Source: Lachnospiraceae bacterium (lineage in GTDB: Bacteria > Bacillota > Clostridia > Lachnospirales > Lachnospiraceae). From it: a stretch of DNA of 64,000 bases. The stretch spans positions 1 to 64,000 of the forward strand of contig JAFUFI010000027.1 in assembly GCA_017469945.1 (NCBI GenBank). Direction: 5' to 3'. Position 1 is the first letter of the stretch. Every line of letters starts with the position of its first letter. The position numbers were made by a program, and so were the translations under genes. Under the pieces are notes generated by a model. It ran no database searches. It saw nothing but the letters and a program-made list of their open reading frames with translations, and was not told the DNA's origin. This document shows, one piece after another, positions 9,214 through 36,104 of this stretch.

Positions 9214-9258
9214 GCGAAGTAATAAATCCATTCCGTCACGGTAAAGGAAAGCAGACCT

Positions 9259-9687: not shown

Positions 9688-9689
9688 TA

Positions 9690-9935: not shown

Positions 9936-10079
9936 TAAATCGCTATTTTCGGGGAATCGTCCGCAATATTTAGGCAGACTTAAAAGTTATTGCGATGATA
10001 AAATTTGCTTATGATGGGGCATTAGTGACAGAAAATGCCCCTTGGTAACATGTAGATAATTATTTTTCGGAGGCATTAT
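9936..10079 (+). promoter_or_regulatory. Leader region of the arabinose operon with hairpin
   Basis: No gene fits here. GGGGCATT (10016-10023) pairs with AATGCCCC (10034-10041) around a 10-base loop; there is no T run, so it is not a standard terminator. TATGAT at 10010-10015 could serve as a -10 box but I find no matching -35 at good spacing. The kinase has a clear GGAGG ribosome binding site just upstream of 10080. Confidence 0.4.
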
Positions 10080-19005: not shown

Positions 19006-19045
19006 AACGCATAAAGTAACGCATAAAGAAACGAGGTAGGACATC

Positions 19046-20311: not shown

Positions 20312-20318
20312 AAGATAA

Positions 20319-21092: not shown

Positions 21093-21107
21093 CGACTGGA
21101 AGGGTTT

Positions 21108-21878
21108 ATGAATACAAATTTGAGAAAAGTTTTAAACGGAATAGCGATACCCGTCGTGGTAGTGATTTTGTGGTGGTATGTGACTACATTCGGTTCGATA
21201 CCTGAGGGAATTCTTCCCAATCTGCCTAAAGTCGGAGCAACCTTTAAAGAGATGATAGCAAGCGGACAGCTCTTTTCAGATCTCGGTATAAGCATCTCGA
21301 GAGTCCTGAAAGGATACGGACTTGCGGTAACCATTGGCATCACACTTGGATCGCTGATCGGTATGTTCAGACCTGTTAGAGAATTGTTTCTACCGATGCT
21401 TACCGTAATAAGACAGATCCCCATCATCGCATGGATCCCGCTCATCATACTCTGGGCAGGAATCGGGGAAGCATCAAAAGTGATAATCATTGTTCTTGCA
21501 GCATTCTTCCCGATACTTGTTAATACAGAAAGCGGGATCAGCGGAACACCCGGAGGATTTCTTGAAGTTGCGAAGCTGTATGGACTCAGCCCTTGGAAAA
21601 CATTCGTAAAGGTGTATTTACCACATGCGCTGCCGAGCATCTTAGTAGGATTAAGATTAGGGCTTGGCGTCTCATGGATGGCGGTTGTAGCGGCGGAACT
21701 TATTGCAGCGGCTTCAGGTGTAGGATACCGGATGAGTAATGCGAGAAGCATGATGAGATCGGATATCGTAATAGTTTGTATGATCGTGATCGGACTGGTC
21801 GGAGTTCTTATGGACAGACTGATCGGTTTTGGATTTGGAAAACTGACCCCCTGGAAAAAGCACGAAGCTAAGAGGTAA
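21108..21878 (+). CDS. Sulfonate/sulfate-type ABC transporter permease
   Basis: This 256-residue protein has about six membrane segments and the inner-membrane coupling loop typical of SsuC/TauC permeases (EVAKLYGLSPWKTFVKVYLP, then a GLRLGLGVSWMAVVAAEL helix). It pairs with the preceding ATPase and the lipoprotein at 17968. Confidence 0.9.
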   Translation: MNTNLRKVLNGIAIPVVVVILWWYVTTFGSIPEGILPNLPKVGATFKEMIASGQLFSDLGISISRVLKGYGLAVTIGITLGSLIGMFRPVRELFLPMLTVIRQIPIIAWIPLIILWAGIGEASKVIIIVLAAFFPILVNTESGISGTPGGFLEVAKLYGLSPWKTFVKVYLPHALPSILVGLRLGLGVSWMAVVAAELIAAASGVGYRMSNARSMMRSDIVIVCMIVIGLVGVLMDRLIGFGFGKLTPWKKHEAKR

Positions 21879-21885
21879 TAGTTTC

Positions 21886-23823
21886 ATGGCATCTATAGAA
21901 TTAAACGCAGAGCAAAAGCCTGCAAGCGAATATACGAAGGCACTTCAATATGAGGTTGCCGAAAAACTTGATATCGACAGGGAGAATGCAGATAACAGCG
22001 AGTGTGAATACGCTGCGCGTCACTGCATCCTCCCTCTGGAAAAAGGATACAGTATTAAGACTGCCGGCGGTCAGGAAGCTTGGAGTCTTGACGGCTATCA
22101 GTTTTTGAAGCGTGATAAAATCTCCGATACGGTAAACCCCAGTCTTTGGCTTAATGGAAAAGCAAGTTTAGAGGCGGGGGTATTTGAAGTATTACCCGGA
22201 AAGATTTACCAGGTGCGCGGAGTCGATATTGCAAACATCACATTTGTCAGAAGTAAAACAGGATGGATTGTGATGGATGTAACGACCTGCATTGAGTCGG
22301 CAAGCAGCGGGATCGAACTCCTGGAAAAGGCTATCGGAGAGGATGTAAAAGGGAATATACGCGCTGTGATCATCAGCCATTCCCATATGGACCATTTTGG
22401 CGGTATCAAGGGAGTAGTTGATGAGAAAAACGTCGGACCGCTATCAAGCGGAAAGATCCCCGTGATCGTACCGGCCGGATTTGATACTGAGACCGTAAAG
22501 GAAAATGTCTTTGCAGGGCCTGCGATGATGAGAAGATCCGGGTATCAGTTCGGTATGCGGCTGAGGGCCGGAGAAAGAGGTAAAGTAAGCGCCGGTCTTG
22601 GAATAAATATGAGTCATGGAACGGTTTCTTACATAGCACCTACAGATTTTATAAGCGAGGATACTACGCTTGTAATTGACGGTCTTGAAGTTGTTTTCCA
22701 GCTTACGCCCGGAACGGAAGCTCCCGCTGAGATGAACAATTATTTCCCTGAATACAGAGCCTTTTGGGCAGCGGAAAACTGCACGGCTACTCTTCATAAC
22801 CTCTATCCTATAAGAGGAGCACAGCTCAGGGACAGCGACGGATGGTGGAGATATATCATGGAGGCCTATATAAAGTTTGGAGATAAGACTGATGTAGTTT
22901 TTCAGTCGCACCACTGGCCTCATGAAAATACCGAGGACGACCCGGAGATGGTAAAAAGGTATCTTCTTGATACTGCCGCTACTTATAAGTATATTCACGA
23001 CAAGACCCTCTACTTTGCCAACAGAGGAAAGACAGAAAAAGAGACGGCAAAGCTTGTTAAAATGCCGGAGAGCCTTGAAAAGTCATGGTACACGAGACCT
23101 TATTACGGCTCAAGGGAGATAAATGTAAGAGCGGTATTTAATAAGTACCTGGGATTTTATAATGCGGATCCGGTTACTCTCGATCCTTTGACCGAGCGCG
23201 AAGAGGCAGAGATGTTTCTTGAGTACGCAGGTTCGGATGAGTACGTACTTGAAAAGGCTTTCGAAGATTTTGAAAAGGGCGAGTACAGAAAGGCTGCAAG
23301 AGCCGCCGGTTATATTGTATCAGCAAGACCGGATAATGAGAGAGCAAGATTCCTTTGCGCCGATGCCTTGGAACAGCTTGGATATCAGGCGGAATCTTCA
23401 ATCTGGAGAAATGCATATCTTGTACGGGCAGCAGAGCTTAGAGAAAATGCGGCGCCTTTGGAATTCAGAGAGGCCGGTGGAGATATAGTGAAAAGCATGC
23501 CTACAAGGTTAAAACTTGCATACCTTGGAACTGTTGTGGACAGCAAGGCATTTGAAGATCTGAATGAGGAGTTTGATCTGTCTGTAATCTCGGAGAGCGG
23601 CGAAGTAAAAGAAATCTACAGGATATATTTATATAAGGGAACTCTCCTTTACAGCGAAGTAAAAGAAATCGGATCCGAAAGGTATGCGAAGATCCCGGAT
23701 AAGGTATTGCCCGCGCTGCTTATCGGACAGATTGACAAAGCAGCTGATCTGATAGATACCAATTGCTTTGAACTGCTAAGAAAGATCGGTTCTGCGGTAA
23801 GATCTCCCTTCAGTCCGGAATAG
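21886..23823 (+). CDS. Alkylsulfatase, metallo-beta-lactamase fold
   Basis: This 645-residue enzyme matches the SdsA1/YjcS-type alkylsulfatases, which hydrolyse primary alkyl sulfates to alcohol and sulfate. The binuclear zinc motif HSHMDH is at 165-170, followed by GTEAPAEMNNYFPEYRA, HNLYPIRGAQLRD and FQSHHWPHENTEDD, all family hallmarks. A dimerisation domain (about 400-520) and an SCP2-like C-terminal domain (about 530-645) follow. There is no signal peptide, whereas many relatives are exported, so here the ester would be cut after import and the sulfate passed to CysDN. It starts 7 bases after the permease. Confidence 0.85.
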   Translation: MASIELNAEQKPASEYTKALQYEVAEKLDIDRENADNSECEYAARHCILPLEKGYSIKTAGGQEAWSLDGYQFLKRDKISDTVNPSLWLNGKASLEAGVFEVLPGKIYQVRGVDIANITFVRSKTGWIVMDVTTCIESASSGIELLEKAIGEDVKGNIRAVIISHSHMDHFGGIKGVVDEKNVGPLSSGKIPVIVPAGFDTETVKENVFAGPAMMRRSGYQFGMRLRAGERGKVSAGLGINMSHGTVSYIAPTDFISEDTTLVIDGLEVVFQLTPGTEAPAEMNNYFPEYRAFWAAENCTATLHNLYPIRGAQLRDSDGWWRYIMEAYIKFGDKTDVVFQSHHWPHENTEDDPEMVKRYLLDTAATYKYIHDKTLYFANRGKTEKETAKLVKMPESLEKSWYTRPYYGSREINVRAVFNKYLGFYNADPVTLDPLTEREEAEMFLEYAGSDEYVLEKAFEDFEKGEYRKAARAAGYIVSARPDNERARFLCADALEQLGYQAESSIWRNAYLVRAAELRENAAPLEFREAGGDIVKSMPTRLKLAYLGTVVDSKAFEDLNEEFDLSVISESGEVKEIYRIYLYKGTLLYSEVKEIGSERYAKIPDKVLPALLIGQIDKAADLIDTNCFELLRKIGSAVRSPFSPE

Positions 23824-23831
23824 GAAAACAA

Positions 23832-25538
23832 ATGGGAAAATTGGAAGTAAAAGAATTTAATACGGATGTCCTGATAATCGGTGGCGGCACAGCAGGCTGC
23901 TTTGCAGCGATCACTCTGGGAGGGGAAAAAGACCTTAAAGTCATCATCGCAGAGAAAGCTGATATAAAGAGGAGCGGATGCCTGGCAGCAGGAGTTAATG
24001 CGATCAATGCGTATATAACCAAAGGCTATAAACCGGAGGATTATGTAGAGTACGCAAGACAGGATGCGGAAGGTATCATCAGAAATGACCTCGCCATTTC
24101 AGCGGCAAGACGTTTTAACAAGGTGACCGCCGATCTTGAAAAGTTTGGTCTTGTAATCTTAAAGGATGAAAACGGAGAGTACGTTGCGAGAGGAAAGCGA
24201 AATATCAAGATAAACGGCGAGAACATTAAGCCGATCCTGGCAGAGCAGGTACGAAAGTCGGAGAATGTTACAGTACTTAACCGTGTAAACATTACGGATC
24301 TTATAACCGATGGAAGCGAGGTAAAAGGAGCGGTTGGATTTTCTGTTACAGAAAACGAAGCTTATGTGATCAGGGCAGGAGCAGTACTTATTGCAACCGG
24401 AGGGGCAGCAGGTCTGTACAGATCGAACAATCCCGGATTTTCCAGACATAAGATGTGGTATCCGCCCTTTAATACCGGAGCCGGATACGCGATGGGGATC
24501 CGCGCAGGAGCGGAGATGACTACTTTCGAGATGAGATTTGTAGCTCTTCGCTGCAAGGATACGATCGCACCAACGGGTACTATAGCCCAGGGAGTAAGAG
24601 CACCACAGGTCAATGCATCCGGAGAAGTTTACGAAACAAAGTACGGCCTTAAAACTTCGGAGAGAATCTACGGAACCGTTATGGAAAACAGACGGGGCGC
24701 AGGTCCCTGCTATCTCGAAACGAAAGGAATAGCAAAGGAATCAGGGGACTCTCTTTTAAGAGCATATCTGAATATGGCTCCCGCCCAGACTCTGAAGTGG
24801 ATCGAGAGCGGAAAGAGACCTGAAGAGCAAAACGTTGAGATTGAAGGAACCGAACCCTACGTTGTCGGAGGACATACTGCCAGTGGTTACTGGGTTGATA
24901 CCGGAAGAGAGACTACTGTAAAAGGTCTTTTTGCGGCAGGAGACGTAGCCGGAGGATTTCCTCAAAAGTATGTTACCGGAGCTCTGGCTGAAGGCGAGAT
25001 AGCCGCAGAAAGCATTATTAAAAGATTAAAGAATAGGATTGTAAGAAATCCGGATTCCGGATTTGACGAAAAGGCCTTGGAAATCCTCAAGGGGTATGAG
25101 AAAGCTTTAGATGATAAGAGCGAGAGTCTTTATTCATACGAAGATATTGAGGAGGCGATGCAGAAGGTGATGGATACCTACGCAGGCGGTATTTCGGCCG
25201 GATACGGATACAACGAAAAACAGCTTCTTGCGGCGGGGGAAAGGATTGACAAACTGTCGGTTCTTGCTGAAGGGTTGAAGGCAGAAAATATGCATGAGCT
25301 GCTCTTTTTGTACGAGATCCGGGAAAGGATTACGGTCTGCAGATCGCTTATAGCTCATCTTCTCGCGCGTAAAGAGACAAGATGGCATGTCTTCGGAGAA
25401 AACTTAGATCATCCGGACAAAGATAAAAACTTTGAAAAGTACGTAAATTCGAGGCTTTCAAATGGCGAGATCGAGATAATACTGAGGGATCTGGTTACCG
25501 GAGAGACGTACGAACATGAGGCTTCGGAGGTGAGCTAG
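23832..25538 (+). CDS. APS reductase flavoprotein subunit (AprA-type)
   Basis: This 568-residue flavoprotein belongs to the fumarate reductase/AprA superfamily, with FAD-binding VLIIGGGTAGCFAAI near the N-terminus, LIATGGAAGLYRSNNPG, GIRAGAEMTTFEMRFV, and GLFAAGDVAGGFPQKYVTGAL. It reduces adenylylsulfate to sulfite and AMP together with the iron-sulfur subunit encoded next. It is about 90 residues shorter than the enzyme of dissimilatory sulfate reducers, like the version in the sulfate assimilation cluster of C. acetobutylicum. CysD and CysN follow immediately, supporting an assimilatory role. Confidence 0.87.
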   Translation: MGKLEVKEFNTDVLIIGGGTAGCFAAITLGGEKDLKVIIAEKADIKRSGCLAAGVNAINAYITKGYKPEDYVEYARQDAEGIIRNDLAISAARRFNKVTADLEKFGLVILKDENGEYVARGKRNIKINGENIKPILAEQVRKSENVTVLNRVNITDLITDGSEVKGAVGFSVTENEAYVIRAGAVLIATGGAAGLYRSNNPGFSRHKMWYPPFNTGAGYAMGIRAGAEMTTFEMRFVALRCKDTIAPTGTIAQGVRAPQVNASGEVYETKYGLKTSERIYGTVMENRRGAGPCYLETKGIAKESGDSLLRAYLNMAPAQTLKWIESGKRPEEQNVEIEGTEPYVVGGHTASGYWVDTGRETTVKGLFAAGDVAGGFPQKYVTGALAEGEIAAESIIKRLKNRIVRNPDSGFDEKALEILKGYEKALDDKSESLYSYEDIEEAMQKVMDTYAGGISAGYGYNEKQLLAAGERIDKLSVLAEGLKAENMHELLFLYEIRERITVCRSLIAHLLARKETRWHVFGENLDHPDKDKNFEKYVNSRLSNGEIEIILRDLVTGETYEHEASEVS

Positions 25539-25850
25539 TTGAGTGTAAAGATTGATACAGATAAATGCGTAGGATGCGGAAGGTGCGCTTCGGTCTGCCC
25601 CGGAACTCTTATCTCGGTTGAGAACGGGAAGGCGGTCATGAACTATCCTAAAGACTGCTGGGGGTGCGTTTCCTGCGTGAAGGAATGTCCGTGCTGTGCG
25701 ATAAAGTACTATCTGGGAGCAGATATCGGCGGCAAGGGAAGCGTGCTCAGCGTTAAACAGGATGGCGAGATACTCAGGTGGACGGTAGAAAAAGCGGATG
25801 GCACCACCGAGGTTATAGAAATCAATCGAAAGGATGCCAACAAATATTAG
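25539..25850 (+). CDS. APS reductase iron-sulfur subunit (AprB-type)
   Basis: This 103-residue ferredoxin has two 4Fe-4S motifs, C10/C13/C16/C20 and C40/C43/C46/C50, with two extra cysteines directly after (PCCAIKYY), as in AprB. The C-terminal tail (about 65-103) is shorter than in dissimilatory enzymes. It starts at TTG directly after the AprA stop codon, with GGAGGTGAG as ribosome binding site, so the two subunits are translationally coupled. Confidence 0.88.
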   Translation: MSVKIDTDKCVGCGRCASVCPGTLISVENGKAVMNYPKDCWGCVSCVKECPCCAIKYYLGADIGGKGSVLSVKQDGEILRWTVEKADGTTEVIEINRKDANKY

Positions 25851-25868: not shown

Positions 25869-26771
25869 ATGAACACATTGTCACATTTGGACGAATTGGA
25901 AGCGGAAGCGATATACATAATAAGAGAGGTTGCGGCAGAGTGCGAAAAGCCTGTAATGCTGTATTCTATCGGTAAGGATTCATCGGTTATGCTGCATCTT
26001 GCGCTTAAAGCATTCTACCCGGAAAAGCCGCCATTTCCTTTTTTGCATGTCAATACGACATGGAAATTTAAGGAGATGATCGAATTCAGGGACAGAAGGG
26101 CCAAGGAACTTGGAATTGAGATGCTCGAGTACATCAACGAAGACGGTGTAAAGCAGGGCATAAACCCCTTTGATCACGGCTCGGCATATACGGATATCAT
26201 GAAGACCCAGGCTCTTAAACAGGCGCTGGACAAATACGGATTTACAGCAGCTTTTGGCGGCGGACGAAGAGATGAAGAAAAGTCCAGAGCAAAGGAAAGA
26301 ATCTTTTCCTTTAGAAGCGCCGGACATGCATGGGATCCAAAGAATCAGCGGCCGGAGATGTGGAAACTTTACAACACTGAGATAAACCGAGGTGAGAGCA
26401 TCAGAGTCTTCCCCATATCAAACTGGACCGAAAAAGATATATGGCAGTATATTCAAAGGGAGAATATTCCGATCGTACCGCTGTACTTTGCGGCTGAGCG
26501 CCCGGTTGTTTACCGCGACGGAAACATCATAATGGTGGATGACGACAGAATGCGTCTTTTACCCGGAGAAAAGCCGGAGATGAAGATGGTAAGGTTCAGA
26601 ACCTTGGGCTGCTATCCTTTGTCGGGTGGTGTTGAATCGACTGCAACTACTCTTCCCGAAATTATCGAGGAGACATTAAGCTCCGTTGAGTCCGAGAGAA
26701 CCAGCAGGGTTATCGACAAGGACGGCGGATCGGCAAGTATGGAAAAAAGAAAGAGAGAGGGCTATTTCTAA
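25869..26771 (+). CDS. cysD: Sulfate adenylyltransferase subunit 2
   Basis: This 300-residue protein is the adenylylating subunit of the CysDN ATP sulfurylase, making APS from ATP and sulfate. The PP-loop is [18 protein letters not shown], and [16 protein letters not shown] and [15 protein letters not shown] are family hallmarks. The last residues ([11 protein letters not shown]) match the usual C-terminus. The next gene starts one base after the stop codon. Confidence 0.95.
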
Positions 26772-26772
26772 A

Positions 26773-28461
26773 ATGAAAGGTCTGTTAAAATTTATAACCT
26801 GCGGCAGTGTTGATGACGGAAAGTCCACACTGATCGGACATATTTTATACGATTCAAAGCTCCTGTATGCGGATCAAAAGGATGCGCTTATACTTGACAG
26901 TAAAGTTGGATCGAGAGGCGGGGAGATTGATTATTCGCTTCTTCTTGACGGACTGATGGCGGAAAGAGAACAGGGAATTACAATCGACGTGGCGTACAGG
27001 TATTTTACTACCGACAAGCGCAGTTTTATTGTTGCGGACACTCCGGGACATGAGCAATATACAAGGAACATGGCAGTTGGCGCATCATTTGCCAGCCTTG
27101 CTATAGTGATGGTAGACGCAAGACACGGAGTACTTGTACAGACAAGGCGACACGCAAGAATCTGCGCGCTTATGGGTATCAAGTATTTTGTATTTGCCGT
27201 AAACAAGATGGATCTTGTCGACTACTCCAAGGAGCGCTTTGACGAGATTACAGCGCAGATAAACGAGCTTTCAGAGTCACTTTCTCTGCATAGCGTGGAG
27301 ATCATACCTGTATCTGCAACCGAAGGAGATAATATTACAAAGAAATCCGATAATACTCCCTGGTATCCCGGAGGATCTCTTTTATCTTATCTTGAAGAGG
27401 TTGATGTAACCGAGAGCGAGGAAGCGGATCATTTCTATCTTCCTATTCAGCGAGTATGCAGACCCAGCCTTGATTTTAGAGGATTTCAGGGACAGATTGA
27501 AAAAGGTGCCCTTAAAAAGGGACAGACGATACATACCTTACCCGGCGGAGAGGATGCGACCGTAGTCCGCATCTATGTTGGCGATAAGGAGTCGGACGAG
27601 GCTGTAGCCGGTCAGGCTGTTACGGTATGCCTTGACAGAGAGGTGGATGTAAGCCGCGGAAGCGTTCTTACCGATTTTGATACTCTTGAGCCGGTCAGCG
27701 AATTCGAAGCGACAATTCTCTGGATGGATGACGAGAAGCTGACTGCAGGAAAAGATTATCTTTTAAAGATAGGTACAAAGAAGACAGGAGCTATAGTCAG
27801 CAGCCTTCTTTACAGTATTGATGTTAATACCGGAGAGCAGAAAAATGTTTCCGAGCTTACCAAGAACGGTATCGCCCGTTGCAGGATCACTCTTACAGAC
27901 AAGGCTATAGTTGATACTTTTAAGAATAACAAAACTCTCGGAGAATTGATCCTGATCGACAGAGTAAGCCACCAGACATCTGCCTGCGGAGTTGTTGAGA
28001 AAGTTAAATCCGGCAAAAATGTATATTTCGAGAAAGATGAGCTGACAACCGGTGGTTATATTTTTGAGGAGTTTTATTTTAATCTTGATAATGCTTCTCT
28101 TTCAAGAGATAAGGAATCGGATAAGGTATACCATGTGGGCGATAGGGTAAATGTTGAAGGAGAATCCTTCAGCTATCCGGCTTTCTTTGATATCGTTGCT
28201 GCGAATGATAAGGCGGTGATATTTATCCGTGACAAGAAGGTCTTTGATATTATTCCCCTTGAGGAATACAGGTATCAGGGACTTCCTCTTACCGACGAGC
28301 GCGGTTTTGCAATCAAGATTGGAAGTACTGAGGACTACGAAAGATTTATCCGTGAGTTTGAGGAGACTCCTGAAGACCAAAGACAGGCTTTCCATAACAG
28401 GTGGACACGTTTTGAAACATACAGACGGATTATCTGTAATGAAAACTTTTGGATAATCTGA
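26773..28461 (+). CDS. cysN: Sulfate adenylyltransferase subunit 1 (GTPase)
   Basis: This 562-residue translation-factor-type GTPase drives APS formation by CysD. G1 is CGSVDDGKSTLIG (about 10-22), G3 DTPGHEQYTRNM, G4 NKMD. No APS kinase domain is fused at the C-terminus, so APS goes to AprAB and not to PAPS. I place the start at 26773, one base after the cysD stop; an upstream extension of 29 codons lies inside cysD. A terminator follows, closing the first sulfur operon. Confidence 0.93.
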   Translation: MKGLLKFITCGSVDDGKSTLIGHILYDSKLLYADQKDALILDSKVGSRGGEIDYSLLLDGLMAEREQGITIDVAYRYFTTDKRSFIVADTPGHEQYTRNMAVGASFASLAIVMVDARHGVLVQTRRHARICALMGIKYFVFAVNKMDLVDYSKERFDEITAQINELSESLSLHSVEIIPVSATEGDNITKKSDNTPWYPGGSLLSYLEEVDVTESEEADHFYLPIQRVCRPSLDFRGFQGQIEKGALKKGQTIHTLPGGEDATVVRIYVGDKESDEAVAGQAVTVCLDREVDVSRGSVLTDFDTLEPVSEFEATILWMDDEKLTAGKDYLLKIGTKKTGAIVSSLLYSIDVNTGEQKNVSELTKNGIARCRITLTDKAIVDTFKNNKTLGELILIDRVSHQTSACGVVEKVKSGKNVYFEKDELTTGGYIFEEFYFNLDNASLSRDKESDKVYHVGDRVNVEGESFSYPAFFDIVAANDKAVIFIRDKKVFDIIPLEEYRYQGLPLTDERGFAIKIGSTEDYERFIREFEETPEDQRQAFHNRWTRFETYRRIICNENFWII

Positions 28462-28605: not shown

Positions 28606-29844
28606 ATGAATTTCAATACGGCACTTCTCCATGACGGAGTTGATAAAAAAGAAAAATACGGATCGACCCTTACTCCGATTTATCAGACCAGCGCTTTCTT
28701 TCAGCAAAGCGCGGAGGATCTTGCGGGCATATTCGGAGGAAAGAACCCGGGATACTGCTATACGAGAGTTCAAAACCCTACGATCGCTGTATTTGAGAAC
28801 AGGATTAATAAGCTCGAGGGCGGTATAGGAACTGTCGCAACGGCTTCGGGAATGGCAGCAATTTTTAATGCGCTTACAAATATCCTGATGACCGGAGACG
28901 AGATAGTCTCAAGCGCATCTTTATACGGAGGAACGATCGACCTTTTCAGAGATCTCGAGGCCTTTGGGATTAAGACAAAGTATGTTGAGAACAACAACTG
29001 GGATGAGATTGAATCAGCTATAAACGATAATACAAAGCTGATCTTTGCAGAGACAATCGGAAACCCCTGTCTTGACGTTACAGATATCGATAGACTGGCG
29101 GAGATTGCACACGCGCACGGACTTCCACTTTTTATCGACAATACGGTTGCTACGGCTTACCTGATAAAACCTATAGAGCACGGCGCGGATATTGTGATCA
29201 ATTCCACATCGAAATATATAAACGGAAGTAGTAATGCTATCGGCGGAGTACTAACCGATGGTGGAAAGTTTAAATGGACTGCCGAAAGATATCCTGTTCT
29301 TAAGGACTATCTTAAGTTTGGCCCTTTTGCTTATATAGCGAGGCTACGGGCAGGGCTTCAGAGAAACGCGGGAGCCTGTATGGCGCCGCAGACAGCCTAC
29401 TTAAACCAGATCGGCCTAGAGACCATGGGGCTTCGTATGGAGCGCCAATGTACGAACGCCGCTTCGCTTGCGAAGCACTTGCAGGATAAATATCCGTCGG
29501 TTACGGTTAATTATCCCGGGCTTGAGACAAGTAAGTGGCATAGTATTGCAGATAAGGTTTTAAAAGGCGGATACGGAGCTATCGTAACGATCCGCGTTGG
29601 GAGCAAGGAAAGAGCCTTCAAGCTTTTAAACTTCCTTGAACTCGCATACAGGCTTTCAAACATTGGAGATACGAAAACGCTGGTGCTTCATCCTTCATCG
29701 ACTATATCGCTGCACTCTACCGATAAACAAAAGGAGGACGCGGGAGTATTCGAGGACCTTATAAGGATCAGCGTAGGAATTGAGGATATCGAGGACCTGA
29801 TCGCAGATTTTGACAAGGCATTCGAAAAGCTGGATCAGGAATAG
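28606..29844 (+). CDS. metY: O-acetylhomoserine sulfhydrylase
   Basis: This 412-residue PLP enzyme of the Cys/Met metabolism family makes homocysteine from O-acetylhomoserine and a sulfide donor. The PLP lysine is K203 in NSTSKYINGSSNAIGG; YTRVQNPT and SGMAAIFNALTNIL are further landmarks, and the long C-terminal VLHPSSTISLHS loop is typical of MetY. It is the first gene of an operon that also encodes a sulfite reductase and a ThiS-type carrier, so the sulfur donor may be a protein thiocarboxylate rather than free sulfide. Confidence 0.92.
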   Translation: MNFNTALLHDGVDKKEKYGSTLTPIYQTSAFFQQSAEDLAGIFGGKNPGYCYTRVQNPTIAVFENRINKLEGGIGTVATASGMAAIFNALTNILMTGDEIVSSASLYGGTIDLFRDLEAFGIKTKYVENNNWDEIESAINDNTKLIFAETIGNPCLDVTDIDRLAEIAHAHGLPLFIDNTVATAYLIKPIEHGADIVINSTSKYINGSSNAIGGVLTDGGKFKWTAERYPVLKDYLKFGPFAYIARLRAGLQRNAGACMAPQTAYLNQIGLETMGLRMERQCTNAASLAKHLQDKYPSVTVNYPGLETSKWHSIADKVLKGGYGAIVTIRVGSKERAFKLLNFLELAYRLSNIGDTKTLVLHPSSTISLHSTDKQKEDAGVFEDLIRISVGIEDIEDLIADFDKAFEKLDQE

Positions 29845-29917
29845 TTTTTTAGAAGAAGAAAACAGTAGAAAAAGTTTTGAAGAAGAAAAAGAAAGCTATG
29901 TATGGAGGAAAGTAAAG

Positions 29918-30787
29918 ATGGCTGATGCGATCGATTATTCATCACTTAAAAAAGGCGGCTTTATGAGACAGAAGCAAAAGGGCTACTTCTCATTAAGACT
30001 TGCCGTAGTAGGAGGAAATCTTACAGCCGAAAATATAAAGACCATTGCTGAGGTTGCAGAAAAGTACGGACACGGGTACGTACATATGACCTCAAGACAG
30101 GGAGTCGAGATTCCTTTTATCAACTTCAATGATATCGAAGAGGTAAGAGGAAAGCTTGCAGAGGGCGGAGTTAAGCCCGGCGTCTGCGGACCGAGAGTAA
30201 GAACGGTTACCGCCTGTCAGGGAAGCGCGATCTGTCCCAGCGGATGTATTGATTCCTATGAGCTGGCTAAAGAATTTGACGAAAGATATTTCGGAAGAGA
30301 GCTTCCTCATAAATTCAAATTCGGTGTAACAGGTTGTATGAACAACTGTCTAAAGAGCGAGGAGAACGACCTCGGAGTTAAGGGCGGATATATCATCGAT
30401 TACAAGCCCGAGACCTGTATCTCCTGCGGTGTCTGCATCAAGGCCTGCAGGGAAGGGGCTTTGAGCCTTGTTGATGGCAAGGTTGTCCTTGATACATCTA
30501 AGTGTAACAACTGTGGACGCTGCGTAAAGAGCTGCCCTGTCGATGCCTGGGATTACACGCCGGGATACATCGTTTCATTCGGAGGACTTTTCGGTAACCA
30601 GATTTATAAAGGTGAACAGATCGTTCCCATCATCAAGGATAAGGAGACTCTCTTTAGAGTTGCAGATGCCGCAATCGATTTCTTTGATAAGAATGCAAAG
30701 CCTGGAGAGAGATTCCGCCTGACTTTGCAGAGAGTTGGGGAAGAGGAATTCAGAAAAGTTATACAGAAAGCGTACGAAGGAGTTTAA
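29918..30787 (+). CDS. Compact siroheme sulfite reductase with two ferredoxin clusters
   Basis: This 289-residue protein combines one ferredoxin-like half domain of sulfite/nitrite reductases (about 10-80), the siroheme and 4Fe-4S ligands C100, C106, C140 and C144 (TACQGSAICPSGC, GVTGCMNNC), and two inserted ferredoxin clusters, C167/C170/C173/C177 and C196/C199/C202/C206. It should reduce sulfite to sulfide with electrons delivered through its own clusters. It is half the size of a classical assimilatory enzyme and resembles AsrC-like and Wolinella Sir-like proteins. I start at 29918, after ATGGAGGAAAG; an upstream in-frame stretch overlaps metY and is not convincing. Confidence 0.85.
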   Translation: MADAIDYSSLKKGGFMRQKQKGYFSLRLAVVGGNLTAENIKTIAEVAEKYGHGYVHMTSRQGVEIPFINFNDIEEVRGKLAEGGVKPGVCGPRVRTVTACQGSAICPSGCIDSYELAKEFDERYFGRELPHKFKFGVTGCMNNCLKSEENDLGVKGGYIIDYKPETCISCGVCIKACREGALSLVDGKVVLDTSKCNNCGRCVKSCPVDAWDYTPGYIVSFGGLFGNQIYKGEQIVPIIKDKETLFRVADAAIDFFDKNAKPGERFRLTLQRVGEEEFRKVIQKAYEGV

Positions 30788-30790
30788 AAC

Positions 30791-31036
30791 ATGGCTGATA
30801 TTAAGATTGACGAAGAAGTAGATATTACGGATAAAGTTTGCCCCCTGACCTTTGTCAAGGCAAAGGTTGCGCTGGATGAGCTTGATGAAGGGCAGATCAT
30901 CGCAATACGTATGAACGACGGAGAACCCGTTCAAAACGTTCCCCGTTCCATCAAGGACGAGGGCCACAGGATCTTAAAACTTGAGGACAACGAAGACGGA
31001 ACCTACACCCTCTTCGTCCAAAAAATCGGAGAATAA
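30791..31036 (+). CDS. TusA-family sulfur carrier protein
   Basis: This 81-residue protein has the TusA fold signature with the sulfur-carrying Cys in DKVCPLTFVKAKVALDEL; the usual CPxP motif is CPLT here. The rest (GQIIAIRMNDGEPVQNVPRS, LFVQKIGE) fits the family. It starts 3 bases after the sulfite reductase and may accept sulfide from it as a persulfide or hand it to the carrier encoded next. Confidence 0.85.
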   Translation: MADIKIDEEVDITDKVCPLTFVKAKVALDELDEGQIIAIRMNDGEPVQNVPRSIKDEGHRILKLEDNEDGTYTLFVQKIGE

Positions 31037-31039
31037 AAT

Positions 31040-31114
31040 GACCCCCGGGGACGGGGTTGGGGGTTCATTGTCAGAATATTCTGACAATGACACATAACCC
31101 CCGTCCCCCTGTGT
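31040..31114. repeat. REP-like palindromic repeat inside the operon
   Basis: A perfect 24-base palindrome (31066-31089, CATTGTCAG/CTGACAATG about AATATT) is flanked by GGGGACGGGG-type sequence on the left (31047-31063) and its near complement ACCCCCGTCCCC on the right (31096-31109). G/C-rich GGGGACGG ends with GTGTCA words are typical of REP-type intergenic elements in Firmicutes. It separates the tusA-like and thiS-like genes and could slow or stabilise the message. Confidence 0.65.
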
Positions 31115-31138
31115 CAAAATTATATGGAGGATTATGAA

Positions 31139-31345
31139 ATGACAATAACAGTTGCAGGAGAAAAGAAAGAGTATAAAGAGGGGCTTACACTTCCCGAGCT
31201 TCTAGAGCTTGAAAATGTTGAGATGCCGGAGTATGTTACCGTATCTATAAATGAGGAGTTTGTTGATTCCGATAAAAAGGCTACCACCGTTTTAAAGGAA
31301 GGGGACAATGTTGAGTTCCTCTATTTCATGGGAGGTGGATGCTAA
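31139..31345 (+). CDS. hcyS: ThiS-like sulfur carrier ending GGGC (HcyS-like)
   Basis: This 68-residue beta-grasp protein (MTITVAGEKKEYKEG, VSINEEFV, LKEGDNVEFLYFMGGGC) is a ThiS/MoaD-type sulfur carrier. Normal carriers end in Gly-Gly; this one has an additional C-terminal Cys, which must be removed to expose the reactive glycine. The JAMM protease at 32188 can do this and the ThiF-like enzyme at 31345 can then adenylate it. This is the gene set called HcyS/HcyD/HcyF in Wolinella methionine synthesis. The start at 31139 has GGAGG 8 bases upstream; a start at 31124 would have no site. Confidence 0.85.
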   Translation: MTITVAGEKKEYKEGLTLPELLELENVEMPEYVTVSINEEFVDSDKKATTVLKEGDNVEFLYFMGGGC

Positions 31346-32163
31346 TGGCACTTACAGACGAGCAGCTTGAGCGTTACTCAAGACATATCATATTAAAAGA
31401 GGTGGGCGCAAAGGGCCAAAAGAAGCTTCTTAACGCAAAGGTTCTTATCATCGGAGCCGGTGGACTCGGAGCCCCCGCTGCAATGTATCTTGCGGCAGCA
31501 GGAGTAGGAACCATTGGCATTGTTGATGCTGACGAGGTTGACCTTTCTAACCTTCAGCGTCAGATAATCCACGGAACAGCTGACGTAGGTAAGCCTAAGG
31601 TACAGTCTGCAAAAGAGACGATGAATGCTATGAACCCGGATGTGGAAGTTAAGACTTATCATATGTTCGTTGATTCAACAAATATCAGAGAGCTTGTGCG
31701 CGAGTATGATTTTATCATCGACGGAACGGACAATTTTCCTGCAAAGTTTTTGATAAACGATGCATGCGTAATCGAGAAAAAGCCTTTTTCTCACGCGGGA
31801 ATCATCCGTTTTAAGGGACAGCTTATGACTTATGTTCCCGGTCAGGGCCCCTGCTACAGATGCGTATTTAAGAATCCCCCGCCAAAGGATGCGGTTCCTA
31901 CCTGTAAGCAGGCAGGCGTAATCGGCGCAATGGGCGGTGTCATCGGAAGCCTGCAGGCTATGGAAGCGGTAAAGTATATAATCGGAGTCGGAAATCTTCT
32001 TACCGGTTATCTTCTTACTTACGATGCTCTTACTATGGAGTTTCATAAGATCAAGCTCCCTGCCGATACACATAAGTGCCCCGTTTGCGGAGATAATCCG
32101 ACAATCTTAGAGCCTATCGATTACGAGCAGGCTGCTTGTGAGTTTAAACCGGGCGGACATTAA
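31345..32163 (+). CDS. hcyF: ThiF/MoeB-like adenylyltransferase (HcyF-like)
   Basis: This 272-residue E1-like enzyme activates the C-terminus of the carrier protein with ATP. It shows IGAGGLGAPAAMYLA (nucleotide loop), DADEVDLSNLQRQ, DGTDNFPAKFLIND, a catalytic-type Cys in VPTCKQAGVIG, and zinc ligands CYRC and CPVC. Its ATG overlaps the stop codon of the carrier gene by one base (TAATG), so the pair is translationally coupled. By sequence alone it could be thiF or moeB; coupling to the GGGC carrier and MetY context favours homocysteine synthesis. Confidence 0.85.
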   Translation: MALTDEQLERYSRHIILKEVGAKGQKKLLNAKVLIIGAGGLGAPAAMYLAAAGVGTIGIVDADEVDLSNLQRQIIHGTADVGKPKVQSAKETMNAMNPDVEVKTYHMFVDSTNIRELVREYDFIIDGTDNFPAKFLINDACVIEKKPFSHAGIIRFKGQLMTYVPGQGPCYRCVFKNPPPKDAVPTCKQAGVIGAMGGVIGSLQAMEAVKYIIGVGNLLTGYLLTYDALTMEFHKIKLPADTHKCPVCGDNPTILEPIDYEQAACEFKPGGH

Positions 32164-32187
32164 AGCCTAGAAAGACGAGGAATCGAG

Positions 32188-32619
32188 ATGGGAATTGTCA
32201 GAATAGACTACCACCTTTATGACGAAATAGTAGAGTATGCAAGGGAGCATCTCCCGGAGGAAGCGTGTGGCCTTATCGCCGGAAGCGAAGACGAAAACGG
32301 GAAAAAGGTTGAGAAGGTTTACTATCTTACCAATGTCGACCATGCCGAAGATCATTTCACTATGGACCCCAAGGAGCAGCTTGAGGCAGTCAAGGATATG
32401 CGTGCCAATGGTTACAAGCCTCTCGGAAACTGGCATTCCCATCCCGAATCTCCCTCAAGACCTTCCGAGGAAGATATAAGGCTTTCTTACGATAAGAATG
32501 CAAGCTATTTTATCCTTTCGCTTATGGCGAAAAATCCTGTCCTTAACTCGTTTCATGTAGAAAACGGGGAAGTGACAAAAGAGGACCTGAGGATGTTCTC
32601 TGAAAAGTATTATTATTAG
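32188..32619 (+). CDS. hcyD: JAMM metalloprotease (HcyD-like, Mec+ family)
   Basis: This 143-residue protein is a minimal JAMM/MPN peptidase. The catalytic Glu is E25 in PEEACGLIAG and the zinc site is H83, H85, S93 and D96 in NWHSHPESPSRPSEED. Family members such as Mec+ of mycobacteria and HcyD of Wolinella trim the C-terminus of, or release amino acids from, sulfur carrier proteins. The obvious substrate is the GGGC carrier encoded at 31139. Confidence 0.88.
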   Translation: MGIVRIDYHLYDEIVEYAREHLPEEACGLIAGSEDENGKKVEKVYYLTNVDHAEDHFTMDPKEQLEAVKDMRANGYKPLGNWHSHPESPSRPSEEDIRLSYDKNASYFILSLMAKNPVLNSFHVENGEVTKEDLRMFSEKYYY

Positions 32620-32633
32620 AACGGAATTAAATT

Positions 32634-33689
32634 ATGAAAAAATTGATCGTATCATTACTTTTAAGCGTGACTGTAATCCTTACCGCAGCAGGATGCGGCA
32701 AGGAGCAGCAGGCAGATGCGAAAGATGAGGTTACTGCAGTAGAGGAGACTGTTGTAGCTGAAGACGCTGAGGCTGTTACCGAAGCGGAAGCTGAGGAAGA
32801 AGGAGGGGAGAAGGTTAGCGGACCTGTATCATTTACCGACGCCCTCGGCCGTCAGGTTACTGTAGAGAGTCCAAAGAAGGTTGCTGTCCTTCTCGGAAGC
32901 TTTGCAGATGTTTGGACTCTTGCCGGCGGAGAAGTATCTGCGACCGTAAAGGATGCCTGGACATCATTTGACTTAGGGCTTTCAGAGACGACTGTTAATG
33001 TCGGAAGCTTTATGGAGCCGGATCTTGAAAAGCTCTTTGATGCAGAGCCTGACTTTATCATCGCAAGCGCAGGCACGTCAGCTCAGGTAGAGCTTCTTGA
33101 TACCTTCGAGATAAGCGGAGTAACCGTTGCTTACTTTGAAGTATCTGATTTTGATGATTATTTAAATATGCTCGGAATCTGCACAAGGATAACCGGAAAC
33201 ACAGAAAACTACGAAAAGTACGGTACTGCTGTTTCGGCATCTATAGAGGATATCAAGGAAAAGGCAAAACAGGATCTTGACGCTAGAATCGCCGGAGGCG
33301 AAGAAGCGCCTACAGTATTATTTATCAGAGCTGCCGCAAGCTCGGTAAAGGCAAAGGGTAGCGAAGGTACTGTGGGAGGAGAGATACTTGCAGATCTCGG
33401 TACTATAAATATAGCCGATGGTGATAGTGCATTACTTGACGACTTAAGCCTTGAAGCTATTGTTGCGGCAGATCCCGATTATATCTTTGTTACTACTCAA
33501 GGAGAGGACAAGGAGGCGGCTCTTTCTAATGTAGCCGATCTTTTAAGCAACAATCCCGCATGGTCGGAGCTCTCTGCCGTAAAAAGCGGAAGATACTTCG
33601 AGATTGAAAAAGAGCTTTACAATTCAAAGCCCAATGCCCGCTGGGGCGAGGCGTACGAAAAAATCGCAAATATTTTATACGGAGAATAA
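32634..33689 (+). CDS. FepB/BtuF-type chelate-binding lipoprotein
   Basis: This 351-residue lipoprotein has lipobox TAAGC and a long acidic Ala/Glu/Val linker (about 25-65) before a class III periplasmic-binding domain (VTVESPKKVAVLLGSFADVW, EPDLEKLFDAEPDFIIASAG, YEKIANILYGE). It would capture an iron chelate, heme or corrinoid for the FecCD permease and ATPase encoded at 34322-36104. Its place in a sulfur operon that needs much iron favours an iron compound; the ligand is not determined. Confidence 0.82.
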   Translation: MKKLIVSLLLSVTVILTAAGCGKEQQADAKDEVTAVEETVVAEDAEAVTEAEAEEEGGEKVSGPVSFTDALGRQVTVESPKKVAVLLGSFADVWTLAGGEVSATVKDAWTSFDLGLSETTVNVGSFMEPDLEKLFDAEPDFIIASAGTSAQVELLDTFEISGVTVAYFEVSDFDDYLNMLGICTRITGNTENYEKYGTAVSASIEDIKEKAKQDLDARIAGGEEAPTVLFIRAAASSVKAKGSEGTVGGEILADLGTINIADGDSALLDDLSLEAIVAADPDYIFVTTQGEDKEAALSNVADLLSNNPAWSELSAVKSGRYFEIEKELYNSKPNARWGEAYEKIANILYGE

Positions 33690-33691
33690 AA

Positions 33692-34300
33692 GTGTCGGTA
33701 TTTCCGTTTTTCTTTGAACTAAGTGGAAAAAAAGGTGTAATAATCGGGGGCGGAAAGATTGCGCTTGAAAAGGTGGAAGCTCTTTCCGGTTTCGGAGCTG
33801 AATTAAATCTTATAGCGCCAGATATACTTCCTGAAATTGAAGAATATACTTTTGTTAATTGTATAAGAAAAGATTTTACTCCCGCAGATTTAAGCGGCGC
33901 GGATTACTGCATAGCGGCCACCGGAATCCGGACGATAAATGAGGAAATATATAAAATATGCAGAGCAAAAAAGATTCCTGTTAATGTTGTGGACAATCAG
34001 GATCTTTGCGACTTTATATTCCCCTCAGTAGTAAAGCGCGGAAAGCTCATAGCCGGGATTACGAGCTCCGGCGCAAGCCCTGCTGTCGCGGTGCACTTGC
34101 GTAAGGAATTCGAAAAGGTAATACCCGGTGATATAGAAGAGATCCTCGATTATTTAGCAGGTATAAGACCTTACGTAAAGGAAAAGATTTCGGATCCAAA
34201 GGTTAGGCATAGAATATTTAAAGCCGCCGGAGCAGAGTGCCTTAGACTTGGAAGAAGCCTTAAGGATGAAGAACTTGAGGAAATCCTGAAATCTGTATAA
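33692..34300 (+). CDS. Precorrin-2 dehydrogenase / sirohydrochlorin ferrochelatase-like
   Basis: This 202-residue protein matches the CysG N-terminal/Met8p family, with the NAD-binding loop GVIIGGGKIALEKVEAL, and SGADYCIAATGIRTIN, VNVVDNQDLCDFIFPSVV and AGITSSGASPAVAVHLRKE. It makes siroheme precursors, and siroheme is the cofactor of the sulfite reductase in the same operon. It starts at GTG two bases after the lipoprotein gene. The uroporphyrinogen methyltransferase that provides precorrin-2 is not in the window. Confidence 0.9.
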   Translation: MSVFPFFFELSGKKGVIIGGGKIALEKVEALSGFGAELNLIAPDILPEIEEYTFVNCIRKDFTPADLSGADYCIAATGIRTINEEIYKICRAKKIPVNVVDNQDLCDFIFPSVVKRGKLIAGITSSGASPAVAVHLRKEFEKVIPGDIEEILDYLAGIRPYVKEKISDPKVRHRIFKAAGAECLRLGRSLKDEELEEILKSV

Positions 34301-34321: not shown

Positions 34322-35353
34322 ATGGCTAAGATAAACATTAAAAACAAAGGCATCATGATCGTGGTCCTCTTTGTTCTTCTTTTTATATTATTTATCCTTT
34401 GCCTGTCTTTAGGAAGCGTCAAGATATCACCAACGGATATCTTCAGAGCGCTAATTCCCGGAGGCAAGCTAAATGACGCGGGAGATATACCGCAAAAAAC
34501 GATCATTATAATCCGAAATATCAGATTCCCGAGAGTGATCGGCGGACTGCTCGCCGGAGTCGGGTTATCTGTAGCCGGAGTAATACTCCAGGGCGTAATG
34601 AACAATGCATTAGCCAGTCCAAACACAATCGGCGTCGGAAGCGGCGCCGGATTTTTTGTAATGCTTTCCTTGCTGCTCTTTCCCGGTAAGGTCTGGGCGC
34701 AGCCGGTATTTGCATTTTTGGGCGCTCTTATTGCAACTCTCGCGATATTCGTACTGGCATACTTTTCCGATACTTCCCGTATAACCATCATCCTGGCCGG
34801 TATCACTGTTTCCAGCTTTTTATCCGCGGGGATCAATCTGATCAAAACACTTAATACGGATATCATCATCAATATCAATTCCTTTTTGATGGGAAATCTA
34901 AGCGGAGTCACGTTTAAATCCATAGCTCTTCCGAGTATTGGAATAACCGCCGGTTTTATACTTGCACTTTTCTTTTCAAGACATCTTAATCTTCTTGGCC
35001 TCGGAGAAAATGTAGCGGCCTCTCTTGGGATGAGGGTAAATCTTGTAAGGTTTCTGTTACTTGTAATATCCAGCGTGCTCGCCGGATGTGTCGTAAGTTT
35101 TGGCGGAATCTTAAGCTTTGCCGGACTGATCGTTCCCCATATCTGCAGAAAACTCTTCGGAAATGATGCAAGATTCCTGATTCCCTGCAGCGCCCTTTTG
35201 GGCGGAAGTTTTGTAATGCTCTGCGATCTTTTGAGCAGAATACTCTTTGCACCCTACGAGCTGCCAACGGGTATTATAATGTCCTTTGTCGGCGGGCCTT
35301 TCTTTATGTACCTGATACTTAGAAAGAAAGGGGGACGAAGGCTGCATGCTTAA
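34322..35353 (+). CDS. FecCD-type ABC permease
   Basis: This 343-residue protein has about nine to ten membrane helices and the FecCD/BtuC hallmarks RNIRFPRVIGGLLAGVGLSV, GVMNNALASPNTIGVGSGAG, SFGGILSFAGLIVPHICRKL and ELPTGIIMSFVGGPFFMYLI. It moves an iron chelate, heme or corrinoid across the membrane. GAAAGGAGAG precedes the start. Confidence 0.92.
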   Translation: MAKINIKNKGIMIVVLFVLLFILFILCLSLGSVKISPTDIFRALIPGGKLNDAGDIPQKTIIIIRNIRFPRVIGGLLAGVGLSVAGVILQGVMNNALASPNTIGVGSGAGFFVMLSLLLFPGKVWAQPVFAFLGALIATLAIFVLAYFSDTSRITIILAGITVSSFLSAGINLIKTLNTDIIININSFLMGNLSGVTFKSIALPSIGITAGFILALFFSRHLNLLGLGENVAASLGMRVNLVRFLLLVISSVLAGCVVSFGGILSFAGLIVPHICRKLFGNDARFLIPCSALLGGSFVMLCDLLSRILFAPYELPTGIIMSFVGGPFFMYLILRKKGGRRLHA

Positions 35354-36104
35354 ATATGAAAATGTTGATATCCTTGCCGGAGGCGAGAAGATTCTTTCGG
35401 ACATAAATATAGAGTTCAAAGAGGGAAAGCTTACGACGATAATCGGCCCCAACGGATGCGGAAAGACTAGTCTTGTCAGCGCCTTAAACGGGTCGGTACG
35501 GGTAAGTAAGGGAAAGATACTTTTGGATGGGGAGGATTACTTATCCTTTGATCCTAAAAAGAGAGGAAGGATCCTTTCTTTTTTACCACAGGTTAGAAAT
35601 ACGATTCCCTCAATATCTACCGGACTTCTTGTATCCCATGGCAGATTCCCTTATCTTGGATTTGCGCGAAGTATGTCGGCTCGGGATAAGGAGGCGGTAG
35701 AGAAAGCGATGGAAGTATCCGACGTAAAAAAGTACGAAAAGATTCCTGTGGATGTTTTGTCCGGAGGAGTCAGACAGCGCAGCTTTTTTGCGCTTTCTCT
35801 TGCCCAGGAATGCGAATACATGATAGCGGACGAACCTACTACTTTTCTCGATATACAGGGTCAAAGGAGAATTCTCGGATTATACAGAAAGCTCCGGGAC
35901 GAGGGGAAGACTGTCGTACTTGTACTTCACGATATTTTGAGCGCTCTGAATATCTCAGACGAAATCGTCGTGATGAACGATAGAAAGATAGTTTTTAAGG
36001 GGACTCCTGCTGATATACTTGAGAGCGGGATCATAGAAAAGGTTTTTGGAGTACGGATCAAAAGCTTTTCGGACCCTGAAGGCGTGTATTATGTGATTTG
36101 CTAA
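35346..36104 (+). CDS. FecE-type ABC transporter ATPase
   Basis: This 252-residue ATPase shows Walker A GPNGCGKTS, Q-loop LPQ, signature LSGGVRQRSF, Walker B CEYMIADEPTTFLD and switch VLHDI. It overlaps the permease gene by 8 bases. The pair plus the lipoprotein at 32634 form one importer. It is the last gene of the sulfur/siroheme operon; I see no clear terminator after it. Confidence 0.92.
   Translation: MLKYENVDILAGGEKILSDINIEFKEGKLTTIIGPNGCGKTSLVSALNGSVRVSKGKILLDGEDYLSFDPKKRGRILSFLPQVRNTIPSISTGLLVSHGRFPYLGFARSMSARDKEAVEKAMEVSDVKKYEKIPVDVLSGGVRQRSFFALSLAQECEYMIADEPTTFLDIQGQRRILGLYRKLRDEGKTVVLVLHDILSALNISDEIVVMNDRKIVFKGTPADILESGIIEKVFGVRIKSFSDPEGVYYVIC

What the first reader, a model, noticed from the sequence alone, without database searches (positions are those of the whole stretch)
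31139..32619. Protein-thiocarboxylate route to homocysteine with a Cys-capped carrier
A ThiS-like carrier ends MGGGC, so its reactive Gly-Gly end is blocked by one Cys. Directly downstream are a ThiF-like activating enzyme and a JAMM protease with intact zinc ligands, and upstream are MetY and sulfite reductase. The same gene set works in Wolinella succinogenes methionine synthesis (HcyS, HcyF, HcyD, MetY). Finding it in a probable Lachnospiraceae, with Cys as the cap, is unusual and suggests that free sulfide is avoided in this anaerobe.
Basis: partly seen in the sequence, partly recalled or inferred. Interest (0 to 1): 0.78.

Follow-up and report, generated by a model that had tools for sequence, protein, structure and literature searches.

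The report
Protease-uncapped sulfur carrier for homocysteine
A Lachnospiraceae-type bacterium carries a gene set of an already known kind that is predicted to build homocysteine, the precursor of methionine, on a small sulfur-carrying protein whose last residue is likely first clipped off by a partner protease; in the related bacteria sampled such tails vary, and they occur almost only in genomes that also carry a gene for this kind of protease.

Summary
Observation confirmed: hcyS (31139-31345) ends MGGGC and lies between metY-sirC-tusA and a ThiF/MoeB-type E1 plus a JAMM protease with intact motifs. It is a new member of a known operon type (row 4e of Iyer et al. 2006, which lists Wolinella and clostridia), most likely the HcyS/HcyF/HcyD/MetY homocysteine route. 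The genome has no other ThiS-family protein over cut-off, no ThiG and no MoaE; the operon MetY groups with Wolinella MetY (3RI6) and shares its missing SYHG loop. Cys is not an unusual cap: 46 of 46 HcyS-type carriers in the family sample are capped, by R (14), C (10), Q (5), AR (5) or others. Sulfide avoidance is untested. New here: caps track the protease. Strong JAMM occurs in 47 of 48 genomes with a capped or fused carrier and 0 of 43 with only bare ones; outside the family 14 of 14 and 1 of 61. In 12 relatives the thiamine carrier itself is capped or fused, with thiF beside it in 0 of 12, against 42 of 50 bare ones. All functions are predicted from sequence.

The parts
28606..29844 (+). 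metY: PLP O-acylhomoserine sulfhydrylase, thiocarboxylate-type by phylogeny and by a missing SYHG loop (predicted)
   Evidence: Pfam PF01053 382 bits; below the TIGR01326 cut-off (456.7 against 495.1); loop absent; same side of the tree as 3RI6, 100/99
29915..30787 (+). sirC: small siroheme sulfite reductase with extra 4Fe-4S clusters (AsrC/Dsr-like; predicted)
   Evidence: PF01077 103.6 bits, PF03460 72.9 bits, Fer4; TIGR02912 154.9 bits, below its cut-off of 324.1
30791..31036 (+). tusA (SirA): sulfurtransferase family protein with Cys-Pro motif, predicted sulfur relay
   Evidence: PF01206 72.2 bits; present at 44 of 46 HcyS loci
31139..31345 (+). hcyS: ThiS-like sulfur carrier, 68 aa, ends MGGG-C (one-residue cap)
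   Evidence: only ThiS-family protein over cut-off in the genome (one further match, 18.7 bits, is below it)
31345..32163 (+). hcyF: MoeB/ThiF-type E1; GxGGLG, TDN, two CxxC pairs and the TCKQAG cysteine kept
   Evidence: PF00899 297.6 bits; aligned to E. coli MoeB and ThiF
32188..32619 (+). hcyD: JAMM/Prok-JAB metalloprotease, predicted to remove the cap and to release homocysteine
   Evidence: PF14464 86.8 bits; 131 bits to PDB 2kks; HxHx7SxxD read from the sequence
23832..25538 (+). aprA-like APS reductase flavoprotein
   Evidence: NF005331 898 bits, cut-off 557; TIGR02061 aprA 327 bits, below its cut-off of 642
25539..25850 (+). aprB-like ferredoxin subunit
   Evidence: TIGR02060 47.3 bits, below its cut-off of 135.65; gene order
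25869..26771 (+). cysD, sulfate adenylyltransferase small subunit
   Evidence: TIGR02039 480 bits, cut-off 396.6
26764..28461 (+). cysN, GTPase subunit of sulfate adenylyltransferase (by gene order and family)
   Evidence: PF00009 144 bits; downstream of cysD
33692..34300 (+). precorrin-2 dehydrogenase (siroheme supply, predicted)
   Evidence: TIGR01470 129.7 bits, cut-off 62.3
32634..33689 (+). substrate-binding lipoprotein of a FecCD-type importer
   Evidence: PF01497 109.2 bits
34322..36104 (+). FecCD permease (34322-35353) and ABC ATPase (35346-36104)
   Evidence: PF01032 297.8 bits; PF00005 81.8 bits

Best explanation
The six genes at 28606-32619 are most likely the Lachnospiraceae version of the protein-thiocarboxylate route to homocysteine, in which a JAMM protease would clip the C-terminal Cys from the carrier HcyS before the carrier is charged with sulfur. 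Predicted steps, none tested here: (1) HcyD cuts after the last Gly of MGGG-C. (2) HcyF adenylates the freed Gly end with ATP. (3) Sulfur from sulfate (CysDN, AprAB-like, SirC), handed over as sulfide or by TusA, gives the HcyS thiocarboxylate. (4) MetY joins it to O-acylhomoserine, giving HcyS-homocysteine. (5) HcyD cuts again after the last Gly and frees homocysteine. The protease must accept homocysteine at the cut in step 5; that would explain why the encoded cap is loosely constrained (R, C, Q, A, S, E, N and T all follow the Gly run in relatives) and why Cys, which is homocysteine less one methylene, works as one of them. What the sequence shows directly: the genes, their order, the intact motifs, the cap and its distribution.
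For: Gene set and intact motifs. No other ThiS-family protein over cut-off, no ThiG and no MoaE in the 94%-complete genome, so thiamine and molybdopterin uses lack their partner enzymes. Conserved module: hcyF 46, tusA 44, jamm 42, sirC 40 and metY 34 of 46 HcyS loci. Operon MetY plus Wolinella 3RI6 on one side of a 100/99 branch; SYHG loop absent in 34 of 34 operon MetY and in 3RI6, present in 30 of 31 paralogue rows and in both reference enzymes. HcyS-type carriers 46 of 46 capped. Strong JAMM in 47 of 48 genomes with a capped or fused carrier against 0 of 43 bare-only, and 14 of 14 against 1 of 61 outside the family. Published precedent: operon row 4e (PMC1779556); methionine route in Wolinella cited in PMC6225789.
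Against: No biochemistry. The Krishnamoorthy and Begley paper is not held, so its steps and its Ala cap are recalled. Wolinella itself was not found in genome contigs, so its HcyS was not compared. 3RI6 sits on a very long branch and the tree is unrooted. The genome has two further MetY enzymes, so the route may be redundant. For HcyS, cap and JAMM travel in one operon, so that part of the correlation is not independent. Exceptions: G029 has two capped carriers and no JAMM found; G331 (68% complete) has a strong JAMM and no ThiS-like match; G668 has a JAMM and only a bare carrier found; the JAMM of G382, counted as present, has an in-frame TGA.
Confidence: 0.86

Rival explanations
1. The carrier serves thiamine or molybdopterin synthesis and lies beside sulfur genes because these supply its sulfur.
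For: Best NCBIfam match is thiS. In relatives, ThiS with the same kind of cap sits in thiG-thiH operons.
Against: This genome has neither ThiG nor MoaE. In family genomes with both types, HcyS-type (FLYFMGGG) and thiamine-type carriers are separate genes; 19 genomes have both.
Confidence: 0.05
2. The carrier makes cysteine, as CysO with Mec+ does (CysM-type partner; recalled).
For: Same carrier, E1 and JAMM logic. MetY family members can use O-acetylserine (recalled). PALP-family genes exist elsewhere in the genome.
Against: The PLP enzyme in the operon is MetY, not a PALP enzyme, in this and 33 other loci, and it groups with Wolinella MetY. The three PALP-family genes lie on other contigs.
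Confidence: 0.07
3. The tail is a neutral read-through residue with no role: JAMM exists only to release homocysteine, and any tail is tolerated because the protease removes it.
For: Cap sequence and length are loosely constrained: 1 to 7 residues in the family sample. ThiS caps needed nine changes on the ThiG tree.
Against: 46 of 46 HcyS-type carriers are capped, none bare, which suggests that the cap is kept. This reading shares the chemistry of the best explanation and differs only on whether the cap is selected, so the two confidences overlap.
Confidence: 0.35

Closest known systems
[quoted passage not shown] seen only as citations in PMC6225789 and PMC5764234, details recalled)
   Same: Carrier with a one-residue cap, E1, JAMM, a loop-less MetY and sulfate-reduction genes (all but the MetY loop recalled)
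   Different: Cap is Cys here, Ala there (recalled); different phylum; TusA is conserved beside the carrier here and its part there is not known to me
Operon type 4e of Iyer, Burroughs and Aravind 2006 (PMC1779556, passages read)
   Same: ThiS/MoaD-like, JAB, E1 without rhodanese, SirA, sulfite reductase and O-acetylhomoserine sulfhydrylase; list includes C. thermocellum, Caldicellulosiruptor, Desulfitobacterium and Wolinella
   Different: APS reduction here by AprAB-like genes rather than PAPS reductase; the passages I read do not describe the tail residue or its variation
CysO-Mec+ cysteine synthesis of Mycobacterium tuberculosis (recalled)
   Same: Carrier thiocarboxylate, amino-acid adduct, JAMM release
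   Different: Partner enzyme is MetY, product homocysteine
QbsE/QbsD of thioquinolobactin synthesis (recalled; Cys-Phe tail removed by a JAMM)
   Same: A carrier whose tail after Gly-Gly begins with Cys and is removed by a JAMM protease
   Different: Siderophore pathway; two-residue tail

Membership tests
HcyS/HcyF/HcyD/MetY homocysteine system | ThiS-like carrier ending in Gly-Gly plus a removable residue | tested here: met
   MGGG-C; 46 of 46 HcyS-type carriers capped; removal itself not tested
HcyS/HcyF/HcyD/MetY homocysteine system | Adjacent E1 and JAMM with intact catalytic motifs | tested here: met
HcyS/HcyF/HcyD/MetY homocysteine system | MetY of the thiocarboxylate-dependent kind | tested here: met
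   by sequence only: groups with 3RI6 (100/99) and shares the loop deletion; activity not tested
HcyS/HcyF/HcyD/MetY homocysteine system | JAMM trims the carrier and releases homocysteine | not testable with these tools
   needs protein assays
Operon type 4e (Iyer et al. 2006) | ThiS-like, JAB, E1 without rhodanese, SirA, sulfite reductase, MetY together | tested here: met
   PMC1779556 passages
Thiamine ThiS system | ThiG in the genome | tested here: not met
   0 matches; the control search rang in 14 of 14 genomes
Molybdopterin MoaD system | MoaE in the genome | tested here: not met
   0 matches; control in 11 of 14 genomes
CysO-Mec+ cysteine system | PALP-type cysteine synthase in the operon | tested here: not met
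   the three PALP-family genes of the genome lie on other contigs

The most novel reading that the evidence does not exclude
The HcyF-HcyD pair is a shared trim-and-charge station, and the cap is the mark of carriers that depend on it. In relatives of this organism the pair has taken over the thiamine carrier again and again: each time ThiS became capped, or fused end to end to ThiG, and the dedicated ThiF was lost. Two pathways, homocysteine and thiazole, then draw sulfur from one protease-gated E1, and a bare or capped last residue predicts which E1 charges a carrier.
Probability: 0.58. Interest if true: 0.66.

Novelty: new member of a known kind. Interest (0 to 1): 0.5.

Why it matters
The finding itself extends a known methionine route to a named gene set in a Lachnospiraceae-type bacterium. 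The wider point is a simple sequence rule that would tell which ubiquitin-like sulfur carriers need a protease, and probably which activating enzyme charges them. It also offers an explanation for thiamine operons that lack thiF: they likely borrow the homocysteine E1. Homologues here are named ThiS by their sources, so methionine and thiamine capability is likely misread in such genomes.

Tried and rejected
Rejected: Cys as a special cap. Rejected: thiamine or molybdopterin role in this genome. Not supported: sulfide avoidance. HcyS was not found in plasmid records. No structure was predicted; the place of the missing MetY loop relative to the active site is therefore unknown. Papers: at least 3 of the terms HcyD, HcyF, HcyS-Ala, metalloprotease, homocysteine gave no hit; at least 4 of ThiF, ThiG, ThiH, C-terminal extension, JAMM gave none.

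Counts and drops: JAMM presence means Prok-JAB at E 1e-14 or better, read by hand (49 genomes). At E 1e-3, 131 of 397 family genomes have some match; most of the extra ones are weak (about 20-24 bits) and many lie in frames of about 230-260 residues, which by recall suits RadC. Weaker hits over the Pfam cut-off exist in 4 of the 43 bare-only family genomes (G201, G258, G175, G323); weaker ones at 1e-6 or better exist in 3 of the 61 bare-only class genomes (G498, G666, G746). G209 was dropped from the cap count (its carrier frame lacks the Gly tail). In the ThiG comparison 4 of 66 thiamine-type rows had no thiG in the fetched stretch and were dropped; one of these, in G029, is capped. Bare ThiS without a neighbouring thiF: 8 of 50, some near contig ends; in one of them, G368, an E1-like frame begins just at the end of the stretch I fetched, so 8 may be 7. 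The MetY set used 34 of 39 hits (five were fragments or weak, under 381 residues); the tree then left out three more rows.

Full report
What is there. The window holds one long plus-strand gene run. The core is metY (28606-29844), sirC (29915-30787), tusA (30791-31036), hcyS (31139-31345), hcyF (31345-32163) and a JAMM gene (32188-32619). hcyS encodes 68 residues ending MGGGC; a GGAGG lies upstream of its ATG, and hcyF starts in the overlap TAATG (sequence). Upstream lie AprA/AprB-like genes, cysD and cysN. Downstream are a FecCD-type importer and a precorrin-2 dehydrogenase, which would serve siroheme. HcyF aligns with E. coli MoeB and ThiF and keeps the GxGGLG loop, TDN, both CxxC pairs and the TCKQAG cysteine. 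The JAMM protein keeps E-x-C-G and HxHx7SxxD and matches PDB 2kks, an uncharacterised protein, at 131 bits.

Not thiamine, not molybdopterin. The genome (2.6 Mb, 94% complete) has one ThiS-family protein over cut-off, this one, and one weak match below it in a long frame; it has no ThiG and no MoaE. The last two searches rang in 14 and 11 of 14 control genomes.

MetY. The genome has three full-length MetY-like enzymes. The two outside the operon pass the curated sulfhydrylase model (614 and 560 bits, cut-off 495); the operon one does not (457). On a tree of 66 rows, the 32 operon MetY and Wolinella MetY (3RI6) lie on one side of a branch with support 100/99, apart from the paralogues and the T. 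maritima and M. tuberculosis enzymes (organism names of the three PDB chains recalled). The tree is unrooted and 3RI6 has a very long branch. A loop ending in SYHG is missing in 34 of 34 operon MetY and in 3RI6, and present in 30 of 31 paralogue rows and in both reference enzymes. My inference is that the missing loop makes room for the carrier tail; I did not test this.

Already known as a kind. Iyer et al. 2006 (PMC1779556; passages read) describe operon type 4e: ThiS/MoaD-like, JAB, E1 without rhodanese, SirA, sulfite reductase and O-acetylhomoserine sulfhydrylase, in Wolinella, Geobacter, several clostridia and others. They also note that thiamine and molybdopterin operons never contain a JAB gene. 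The Wolinella methionine route is cited in PMC6225789 and PMC5764234 (passages read); the original paper is not held. From recall, its HcyS ends in a removable Ala and HcyD both trims the carrier and frees homocysteine.

I searched 397 genomes of the window's family (unnamed; the named homologues listed are from Lachnospiraceae). 92 have a ThiS-like match. HcyS-type carriers number 46 in 45 genomes, and 46 of 46 are capped: R 14, C 10, Q 5, AR 5, QR 2 and ten single cases. Cap lengths are 1 (29), 2 (12) and 4-7 (5). Among the 120 listed of 2683 homologues, 93 end GGGC, 16 GGGQ, 5 GGGR, 1 GGGK and 5 otherwise. So Cys is common near this sequence and one of many beyond it.

Cap and protease go together. 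Strong Prok-JAB (E 1e-14 or better) occurs in 47 of 48 family genomes with a capped or fused carrier and 0 of 43 with only bare carriers; one genome, G209, was unclear. The exception, G029, has two capped carriers and no JAMM found. One more genome, G331 (68% complete), has a strong JAMM and no ThiS-like match. Outside the family, in a class-level draw of 391 genomes with 75 non-family genomes holding a match, the figures are 14 of 14 and 1 of 61. Within the HcyS operon the two genes are inherited together, so the stronger test is the thiamine-type carriers alone: 12 of 13 capped or fused ones, against 9 of 52 bare ones, lie in genomes with JAMM.

The thiamine carrier. In 12 family genomes ThiS itself, beside thiG, is capped (SK, SF, AR, C, SL, Q, CY, SC) or fused to ThiG (L101, L112). 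None of the 12 has thiF nearby, against 42 of 50 with bare ThiS (Fisher p 6e-8). Within JAMM genomes only, it is 0 of 12 against 6 of 9 (p 0.0015). On a ThiG tree the capped state needs nine changes, at least seven on well-supported branches; of seven independent pairs about six go the same way and none the other (median p 0.03). The tree is weakly supported (18 of 59 branches starred). Searched with a thiamine-type ThiF, the 12 genomes give nothing better than E 8e-18, while the 6 JAMM genomes with bare ThiS and a neighbouring thiF give 5e-66 or better; the 3 bare ones without it also lack it (best 1e-19). Each of the 12 has the HcyF-type E1. Eleven of the 12 (not G151) also have one or two other E1-like frames elsewhere in the genome; by recall most would be TcdA, which I did not test. 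G176 and G192 carry an HcyF-like E1 and a JAMM side by side and no HcyS-type match. So in these genomes the HcyF-type enzyme is the likely charger of ThiS, after trimming. This was seen in relatives, not in the window's genome.

Sulfur donor. tusA is present at 44 of 46 HcyS loci; both misses are beside contig ends. sirC and tusA matches lie within 150 bases in 37 of 39 other loci with both, the remaining two within 175. A direct hand-over from SirC to TusA, so that little free sulfide is needed, is possible but untested. The two other MetY enzymes and three PALP-family genes speak against a cell that avoids sulfide altogether.

Verdict. A real and well-formed member of a known operon type, with a likely known mechanism. 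The new content is the cap survey, the cap-JAMM rule and the repeated capping of ThiS with loss of ThiF. I know of no paper on the last: one search listed none, and one search listed five papers, of which I read passages of one (PMC1779556) and only the listing of the other four. That is not proof that none exists.

Noticed in passing
L061, L065, L067, L071, L075 (between metY and hcyS) and L045 (upstream of metY): Six relatives carry a family-2A encapsulin shell gene, a second JAMM and an E1 of about 490-530 residues; in L061, where the genes were scanned, the E1 is a ThiS-E1-rhodanese fusion, and a cysteine-desulfurase cargo and a CysE-like gene follow. The encapsulin is in these six of the 16 genomes I chose to test and absent in the window's genome.
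   Followed up: partly
31034-31138: The tusA-hcyS gap holds the perfect palindrome GTCAGAATATTCTGAC, once in the window, inside a long hairpin (-45 kcal/mol, z -3.7). Possibly a mobile or regulatory repeat.
   Followed up: partly
17968-23823: An ABC importer with an NMT1-type binding protein, a DUF1254/DUF1214 protein and an alkylsulfatase-like protein lie just upstream, so organic sulfate esters may feed this operon.
   Followed up: partly
L101, L112, L272: ThiS fused to ThiG through a linker after the Gly run, in three genomes, all with a strong JAMM. The protease would have to cut the fusion.
   Followed up: partly
G116 (same genus as the window's genome): A 99%-complete genome of the same genus has no HcyS match and no strong JAMM, so the system is patchy even within the genus.
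   Followed up: no
G029 (L082, L100): Two capped carriers and an HcyF but no JAMM found: an assembly gap, or a true exception to the rule.
   Followed up: partly
L153, about 9184-10937: In G176 the E1-JAMM pair without HcyS lies beside a gene with an SGGKDS motif, as in TtcA-like tRNA thiolases (recalled motif).
   Followed up: no
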